A stretch of 64,000 nt of DNA from a virus: positions 1 through 64,000 of IMG/VR virus record IMGVR_UViG_3300008262_000018; one strand, given 5' to 3'. The notes under the pieces are model-generated. The model was not told where the DNA came from, searched no databases, and saw only the letters and a list, made by a program, of their open reading frames with translations. Shown here one piece after another: positions 6,138 through 6,368 of this stretch; positions within the stretch are counted from its first letter, which is position 1, and each line of letters opens with the position of its first letter. Both the position numbers and the translations under genes were made by a program.

Positions 6138-6261
6138 CCCTACAGGCCATAGGGTCGTAGTTCCTCTCACGCTACCCATAAGAACAGCGCCCCAGGAGAG
6201 CTAGATCGTAAGCTAGATGGGTTTGGCAACTTCCCCACTGACGAGAGAATAAGTTGCATAT
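6138..6261 (+). ncRNA. GC-rich structured RNA region upstream of the tRNA
   Basis: This 124-base gene-free stretch is about half G+C in an AT-rich genome and has many local pairings. CCCTA/TAGGG (6138..6154) forms a hairpin. CTCTC (6164..6168) pairs with GAGAG (6196..6200) around CGCT/AGCG (6170..6173, 6186..6189), closing a 12-base loop. ACCCAT (6174..6179) can alternatively pair with ATGGGT (6217..6222). CCCTACA at 6138..6144 repeats the tRNA's 3' acceptor strand and could pair with its 5' strand TGTAGGG. No frame is open. It may be a tRNA-processing or regulatory RNA; no known ribozyme class fits. Confidence 0.45.
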
Positions 6262-6368
6262 TGTAGGGTGGTGAAATAGGCAAACACGCCATCTTGTCTC
6301 GATGGTTTATGTCGCTAATTTGGTAAATAATTGCGATATAAATGTAGGTTCGACTCCTACCCCTACAG
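6262..6368 (+). tRNA. Class II-like tRNA, anticodon GUC, very long variable arm
   Basis: All arms can be drawn. Acceptor TGTAGGG (6262..6268) pairs with CCCTACA (6361..6367). The D arm is GTG/CAC with an 11-base loop. The anticodon arm CCATC/GATGG has loop TTGTCTC, so the anticodon is GTC (6296..6298, Asp). The variable region is 38 bases (6306..6343) with a 10-pair stem. The T arm is GTAGG/CCTAC with loop TTCGACT, and the discriminator is G6368, followed by CAA. The body looks Leu-like (GGTGAAATAGGCAAACAC), yet the anticodon is Asp, whose normal tRNA has a short variable loop. A tRNA-like element is possible instead. Confidence 0.7.

What the first reader, a model, noticed from the sequence alone, without database searches (positions are those of the whole stretch)
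6262..6368. tRNA with Asp anticodon on a class II body and a 38-nt variable arm
Seen: every tRNA arm pairs, the anticodon loop reads TTGTCTC (GUC), and the variable region forms a 10-pair stem with a 17-base loop. Known: Asp tRNAs have short variable loops; long arms mark Leu, Ser, some Tyr and Sec tRNAs, and 38 bases is longer than these. The D arm is Leu-like, the discriminator is G. Inference: a tRNA charged with a class II amino acid but reading Asp codons would mistranslate host or phage messages; or the RNA serves a non-decoding role.
Basis: partly seen in the sequence, partly recalled or inferred. Interest (0 to 1): 0.82.

Follow-up and report, generated by a model that had tools for sequence, protein, structure and literature searches.

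The report
Phage-borne RNA carrier for asparagine synthesis
The odd phage tRNA belongs to a large, apparently undescribed family of long-armed tRNAs in Bacteroidota and their phages that look built not to read codons but to carry aspartate while the enzyme GatCAB turns it into asparagine, so an RNA seems to stand in for an asparagine-making enzyme.

Summary
In detail: window 6262-6368 is an intact class II tRNA with GUC in the anticodon loop. Covariation supports every helix, and it recurs in about 100 viral contigs. It is not a phage oddity. The same RNA, usually two copies, is in the chromosomes of 97 of 121 genomes of one Bacteroidota order, beside an ordinary tRNA-Asp in the one genome checked. 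Rfam and ARAGORN miss the window and tested host copies.

What is conserved is diagnostic: G10, G34-U35-C36, C38 and G73 (the AspRS identity set), plus U1-A72 (the GatCAB amidation determinant of tRNA-Asn). Position 33 and often 37 are free, which is odd for a decoding tRNA. In the order sample, GatB occurs in exactly the genomes with the RNA (97/97) and in none without (0/24). Most RNA+ genomes also have GlnRS and AsnRS, leaving GatCAB no usual job. They lack the E. coli-type AsnB that RNA- genomes have. The RNA lies divergent from an AsnC orthologue, the place asnA holds in E. coli.

Best explanation (0.72): a dedicated, largely non-decoding carrier on which AspRS loads Asp and GatCAB makes Asn; phages carry it as an auxiliary metabolic RNA. 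Charging, amidation and Asn release are inferred, not shown.

The parts
6262..6368 (+). class II tRNA-like RNA (mature length without CCA), Asp-charging / Asn-amidation hybrid
   Evidence: fold; model R1 94.8 bits, E 5e-25; covariation
6262..6268 (+). acceptor stem 5' strand TGTAGGG; U1 pairs A72 (6367), G2 pairs C71
   Evidence: U1-A72 in 28, A1-U72 in 5 of 33 aligned relatives
6271..6287 (+). D arm GTG AAATAGGCAAA CAC, Leu-type, G10 kept; A at the expected position 20a rather than the U20a antideterminant (position 20a assigned by the Leu convention)
   Evidence: comparison with Pedobacter Leu, Asp and Asn tRNAs
6289..6305 (+). anticodon arm CCATC TTGTCTC GATGG; anticodon GUC 6296-6298, U37 6299, C38 6300
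   Evidence: loop survey
6306..6343 (+). variable region, 38 nt, stem-loop; length 5-104 nt in phage relatives, 38 to about 100 nt in chromosomes
6344..6360 (+). T arm GTAGG TTCGACT CCTAC
6361..6368 (+). acceptor 3' strand CCCTACA and discriminator G73, followed by C; CCA not encoded
   Evidence: G73 in 41 of 41 terminase-anchored copies

Best explanation
The RNA is a dedicated carrier tRNA for making asparagine. AspRS charges it with aspartate because it has the Asp anticodon loop (G34 U35 C36, C38), G10 and G73. GatCAB then amidates the attached Asp to Asn because the acceptor end carries the U1-A72 pair of tRNA-Asn instead of the G1-C72 of tRNA-Asp. The Asn-RNA should be unfit for the ribosome (variable base 33, pyrimidine or G at 37, very large variable arm), so it would not put Asn at Asp codons; Asn is probably freed by deacylation and then used by AsnRS. 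In chromosomes an AsnC orthologue divergent from it probably sets its transcription by Asn level. The phage copy would raise Asn supply during infection, as an auxiliary metabolic RNA. Shown: structure, family, conserved bases, exact co-occurrence with GatB, missing canonical synthetases, AsnC synteny. Inferred: aspartylation, amidation, exclusion from translation, Asn release, regulation, benefit to the phage.
For: (1) All bacterial Asp identity bases are kept (Table 1 of PMC9976931), while base 33 is T, C, G or A and base 37 is U, C or G. (2) U1-A72 confers, and G1-C72 plus U20a block, amidation of Asp-tRNA (PMC9976931); the RNA has U1-A72 in 41/41 terminase-anchored copies, while the same host's tRNA-Asp is G1-C72 and its tRNA-Asn U1-A72. 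(3) In 121 genomes of one order, RNA and GatB (PF02934) have the same 97 positives and the same 24 negatives. In the wider sample 26/26 RNA+ genomes have GatB. (4) 26/26 RNA+ genomes have AsnRS and 22/26 GlnRS over cut-off, so GatCAB has no usual job in most. (5) In-order RNA- genomes have a canonical 560-585 aa AsnB (14/14; four checked are 64-66% identical to E. coli AsnB) and often AsnA (10/14). No RNA+ genome shows that AsnB hit pattern and 3/26 have AsnA; G001's AsnB-like genes lie in a polysaccharide cluster. (6) The RNA is divergent from an AsnC-like gene in 96/117 named loci, median gap 156 bp, and in 21 of 40 further loci checked (overlapping set). That protein is 38-47% identical to E. 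coli AsnC against 22-26% for Lrp; in E. coli asnC is divergent from asnA across 151 bp. (7) Precedent: GatCAB beside AsnRS and GlnRS makes Asn on tRNA in Bdellovibrio, Deinococcus and Thermus (PMC4206432).
Against: No charging, amidation or expression data. The co-occurrence may rest on few evolutionary events: joint loss in one clade would give the same table. Some phage relatives have A1-U72, loop CTGTTTA (GUU, Asn) or CTATCTC, which the simple model does not predict. One host copy has C34 (L411). Many RNA+ genomes keep AsnB-like proteins over the TIGR01536 cut-off that could make some Asn, and three have AsnA. Three Bacteroidota (G014, G020, G032) have GatB, GlnRS and AsnRS, no detected RNA and no Asn synthetase over cut-off, so other solutions exist. 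What frees the Asn is unknown.
Confidence: 0.72

Rival explanations
1. It is an unusual but ordinary decoding tRNA-Asp isoacceptor, used by hosts and phages to read GAU/GAC.
For: GUC anticodon and full Asp identity set; phages often carry tRNAs; relatives have tRNA-Cys, -Met or -Leu genes nearby; Asp codons are frequent in the phage, 63 per 1000.
Against: Base 33 is often not U and base 37 is U, C or G, unlike decoding tRNAs. The one host genome examined has an ordinary tRNA-Asp. U1-A72 would make it a GatCAB substrate and put Asn at Asp codons. It explains neither the exact GatB co-occurrence nor the AsnC synteny.
Confidence: 0.1
2. It is a class II tRNA charged with Ser or Leu that misreads Asp codons.
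For: Leu-type D arm, long variable arm; G73 with a long arm favours SerRS, and Leu-to-Ser switches follow A73 to G73 (PMC9976931).
Against: SerRS and LeuRS ignore the anticodon, yet G34 U35 C36 and C38 are the most conserved loop bases across hosts and phages while the variable arm varies from 5 to over 100 nt.
Confidence: 0.04
3. It is a regulatory sensor: its charging or amidation state reports Asp, Asn or amide-nitrogen supply, perhaps together with AsnC, rather than producing Asn in bulk.
For: Divergent AsnC; elaborate conserved variable arm in chromosomes that could bind a protein.
Against: Phages carry it without AsnC, often with a stripped arm. RNA+ genomes lack the canonical AsnB seen in RNA- genomes, which fits a metabolic replacement better.
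Confidence: 0.1
4. It supplies Asp- or Asn-RNA as donor for another tRNA-dependent reaction (lipid, peptide or cell-wall modification).
For: Non-decoding tRNAs for cell-wall synthesis are known (tRNA-Gly of staphylococci; own knowledge).
Against: No transferase gene is among the conserved neighbours inspected by clustering; GatB co-occurrence points to amidation.
Confidence: 0.04

Closest known systems
Two-step (transamidation) Asn-tRNA-Asn pathway: ND-AspRS + GatCAB (Deinococcus, Thermus, Bdellovibrio; PMC4206432)
   Same: Asp on a G73, U1-A72 RNA expected to be amidated by GatCAB; GatCAB kept beside AsnRS and GlnRS where Asn synthetases are lacking
   Different: Known carriers are decoding tRNA-Asn (GUU) charged by a non-discriminating AspRS. 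Here a separate class II RNA with the Asp anticodon would let an ordinary AspRS do the first step
Bacterial tRNA-Leu (class II)
   Same: D arm, 3-bp D stem, long variable arm, cloverleaf geometry
   Different: G73 instead of A73, GUC loop with C38, U1-A72, variable arm up to about 100 nt
Allo-tRNAs and selC-like tRNAs (reviewed in PMC7609411)
   Same: long variable arm with non-class-II anticodons, GUC among them
   Different: allo-tRNAs have 8/4 or 9/3 acceptor/T stems; this RNA is 7/5 and keeps Asp rather than Ser identity bases
E. coli asnC-asnA module
   Same: asnC divergent from the Asn-synthesis gene across about 150 bp
   Different: an RNA stands where the asnA protein gene is
Non-decoding staphylococcal tRNA-Gly for peptidoglycan (own knowledge)
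   Same: a tRNA dedicated to metabolism outside the ribosome
   Different: different amino acid, no amidation, class I body

Membership tests
tRNA fold, class II | cloverleaf 7/5 with long paired variable arm | tested here: met
bacterial tRNA-Asp (AspRS substrate) | G73, G10, G34 U35 C36, C38 | tested here: met
   against Table 1 of PMC9976931
bacterial tRNA-Asp (AspRS substrate) | short variable loop and G1-C72 | tested here: not met
   38-nt arm and U1-A72; host tRNA-Asp is G1-C72
decoding tRNA | U33 and purine 37 | tested here: not met
   window has U33 but U37; relatives have G, A or C at 33 and U, C or G at 37
GatCAB substrate (tRNA-Asn type) | U1-A72, no U20a antideterminant | tested here: met
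   U1-A72 in window and 41/41 terminase-anchored copies; A at 20a by the Leu numbering convention; some other phage copies are A1-U72
GatCAB substrate (tRNA-Asn type) | Asp on the RNA amidated in vitro | not testable with these tools
   needs aminoacylation assay
tRNA-dependent Asn biosynthesis organism type (AsnRS + GlnRS + GatCAB, no AsnA/AsnB) | gene complement | tested here: met
   exceptions: 4 of 26 lack GlnRS, 3 of 26 have AsnA, AsnB-like paralogues remain in many
non-discriminating AspRS route | AspRS of ND type (His/Gly signature in the anticodon-binding domain, own knowledge) | tested here: inconclusive
   Sphingobacteriales AspRS read RDLGG and SxKN, like E. coli, hence discriminating type; two genomes (G276, G284) lack the Lys. 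The signature itself was not confirmed from a paper
tRNA-Leu / LeuRS substrate | A73 | tested here: not met
   G73
allo-tRNA | 8/4 or 9/3 stems | tested here: not met
   7/5 stems
any Rfam family | match at gathering score | tested here: not met
   (window and four host loci)
AsnC (neighbour protein in chromosomes) | closer to E. coli AsnC than to Lrp over full length | tested here: met
   38-47% against 22-26% or no hit; Pfam PF01037, PF13404

The most novel reading that the evidence does not exclude
A dedicated non-coding RNA cofactor replaces asparagine synthetase: a tRNA with the charging end of tRNA-Asp and the amidation end of tRNA-Asn, kept off the ribosome, sits in the asnA position under AsnC control in a major bacterial order, and has been taken up by phages as an auxiliary metabolic RNA.
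Probability: 0.6. Interest if true: 0.93.

Novelty: new variant of a known kind. Interest (0 to 1): 0.87.

Why it matters
If true, it would be an RNA gene that takes the place of a biosynthetic enzyme gene, and it would answer how AsnRS-bearing Bacteroidota without canonical Asn synthetases make asparagine and why they keep GatCAB. It would also show phages moving a metabolic RNA rather than a metabolic protein, and give a naturally evolved hybrid tRNA identity for study. The family is invisible to ARAGORN and Rfam in the copies tested, so it is probably missing or misnamed in annotated genomes.

Tried and rejected
Rfam and ARAGORN (nothing useful for the window or host copies; ARAGORN does call some shorter-armed phage relatives tRNA-Asp). 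Blastn of the element against annotated phages (no match). First viral pattern with a one-base spacing error (2 hits). Idea that it is the host's only tRNA-Asp: rejected, an ordinary one exists in the one genome checked. Idea that a hammerhead or theta ribozyme upstream processes it: no Rfam support. Idea of antisense pairing through GUCUC: dropped once hosts with GUCCC and GUCGC and phages with GUU were seen. Paper searches for a published description found none, but the library holds only open-licence papers. Mukai et al. 2017 was not held. AsnA genes in RNA- genomes are not next to AsnC.

Full report
Observation. Window 6262-6368 folds as a complete class II tRNA. ARAGORN and Rfam do not report it.

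The phage family. The large terminase gene next to it (phrog_6681) brought in 80 relatives. The terminase and portal hits and the very large ORFs suggest a crAss-like phage, but this was not tested. Of 60 relative loci searched with the covariance model, 40 carry the RNA, and some of the rest are truncated upstream. All 41 copies, window included, have U1-A72, G73 and loop NNGUCUC. A pattern scan requiring GTCTC found 105 viral contigs. A scan without the loop found GUC with C38 in most, plus groups with GUU (CTGTTTA, usually with A1-U72) and AUC. Variable arms run from 5 to over 100 nt. Base 33 is T, C, G or A.

The chromosomal family. Two tandem copies are usual. The arm is conserved (GGAGA..TGGGAAA..GGCTAACCACTCC in one copy, a 67-76 nt arm in the other), and more distant Bacteroidota have arms near 100 nt with GGAYAAAC, GGGTTGACCAC and AGCTAAC motifs. 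Loops are NNGUC(U/C/G)C, with one C34 exception (L411). The Pedobacter montanisoli genome examined also has an ordinary tRNA-Asp.

Structure is under selection. On 33 aligned sequences all five helices are supported, the variable-arm stem included.

Reading the conserved bases. A review table gives bacterial Asp identity as G73, G10, G34, U35, C36, C38 (PMC9976931). The same review says amidation of Asp-tRNA-Asn is conferred by U1-A72 and prevented in Asp-tRNA-Asp by G1-C72 and U20a. The RNA has the first set and U1-A72, on a Leu-type body with A at 20a (assigned by the Leu numbering convention). In the same Pedobacter genome tRNA-Asp is G1-C72 and tRNA-Asn U1-A72. So the RNA combines the charging end of one with the amidation end of the other.

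GatCAB. GatB was sought in 56 genomes: 26/26 with the RNA, 0/14 without it in the same order, 12/16 without it elsewhere in the phylum. For the whole order sample of 121 genomes, the RNA-positive set and the GatB-positive set are identical: 97 and 24, no discordance. The genomes are related, so the Fisher value of 7e-26 overstates independence; joint loss in one clade could contribute much of it. RNA+ genomes have AsnRS (26/26) and mostly GlnRS (22/26) over cut-off, so GatCAB is not needed for translation in most. RNA- genomes of the order all show the canonical AsnB hit pattern, confirmed by 64-66% identity to E. coli AsnB in four checked, and 10/14 have AsnA. RNA+ genomes do not show that pattern. 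Their TIGR01536 hits are longer paralogues, in Pedobacter montanisoli inside a polysaccharide cluster, and four have none over cut-off; three of 26 have AsnA.

Locus. In 96 of 117 named loci the RNA is divergent from one conserved gene, median gap 156 bp, and the same gene was found in 21 of 40 loci checked across more distant Bacteroidota (the two sets overlap in part). It is an AsnC orthologue, 38-47% identical to E. coli AsnC and 22-26% or undetected to Lrp. In E. coli asnC is divergent from asnA across 151 bp. Where E. coli has the asparagine synthetase gene, these bacteria have the RNA. No phage locus carries AsnC.

AspRS. Most AspRS of RNA+ genomes carry the Leu and Lys of discriminating enzymes at one or both of the two diagnostic sites, and all Sphingobacteriales checked carry both where readable (signature from own knowledge). 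A discriminating AspRS could not load Asp on tRNA-Asn, which would explain why a GUC carrier is needed. Two genomes (G276, G284) lack the Lys.

Mechanism. AspRS loads Asp; GatCAB converts it to Asn; the RNA is poorly suited to the ribosome, so Asn is released and used by AsnRS. The first two steps follow from known determinants; release and exclusion are inference. The phage copy would supply the host pathway with more carrier.

Limits. No biochemistry, no expression data, no taxonomic names for the sampled genomes, phylogeny not controlled, GUU and A1-U72 phage variants unexplained, some GatB+ genomes without Asn synthetase and without the RNA (G014, G020, G032), and a literature library restricted to open licences. 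'Undescribed' therefore means not found in Rfam 15 or in the searches listed.

Noticed in passing
window 6139-6258 (+): GC-rich segment just upstream, conserved with pairing in eight phage loci (window, L002-L006, L035, L069); contains CUGACGA and a copy of CCCTACAG found at the tRNA 3' end; no Rfam match. Unidentified structured RNA.
   Followed up: partly
G000 114996-115397 (-), outside the window (L424): The phage genome encodes a tmRNA call with tag GTSNVDRVAEGEAILASIFGEVAIAA, next to a second tRNA-like RNA at about 115403-115512 (46.9 bits to the model).
   Followed up: partly
L002-L006 directly downstream of the RNA: Close relatives carry a tRNA-Cys right after the class II RNA; ARAGORN finds none in the window, so this phage appears to have lost it.
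   Followed up: no
L018, L022, L024, L026, L028, L030-L033, L035, L040: Phage copies with an insertion enlarging the D arm (e.g. GGGTTGTCTCAGTTATGACCC) as well as a roughly 100-nt variable arm.
   Followed up: no
L348-L350, L356, L365, L370, L372, L378, L381: Phage class II tRNAs with the same body, A1-U72 and loop CTGTTTA (GUU, Asn anticodon).
   Followed up: partly
G014, G020, G032: Bacteroidota genomes with GatB, GlnRS and AsnRS but no detected RNA and no Asn synthetase over cut-off: another asparagine route, a diverged RNA, or auxotrophy.
   Followed up: no
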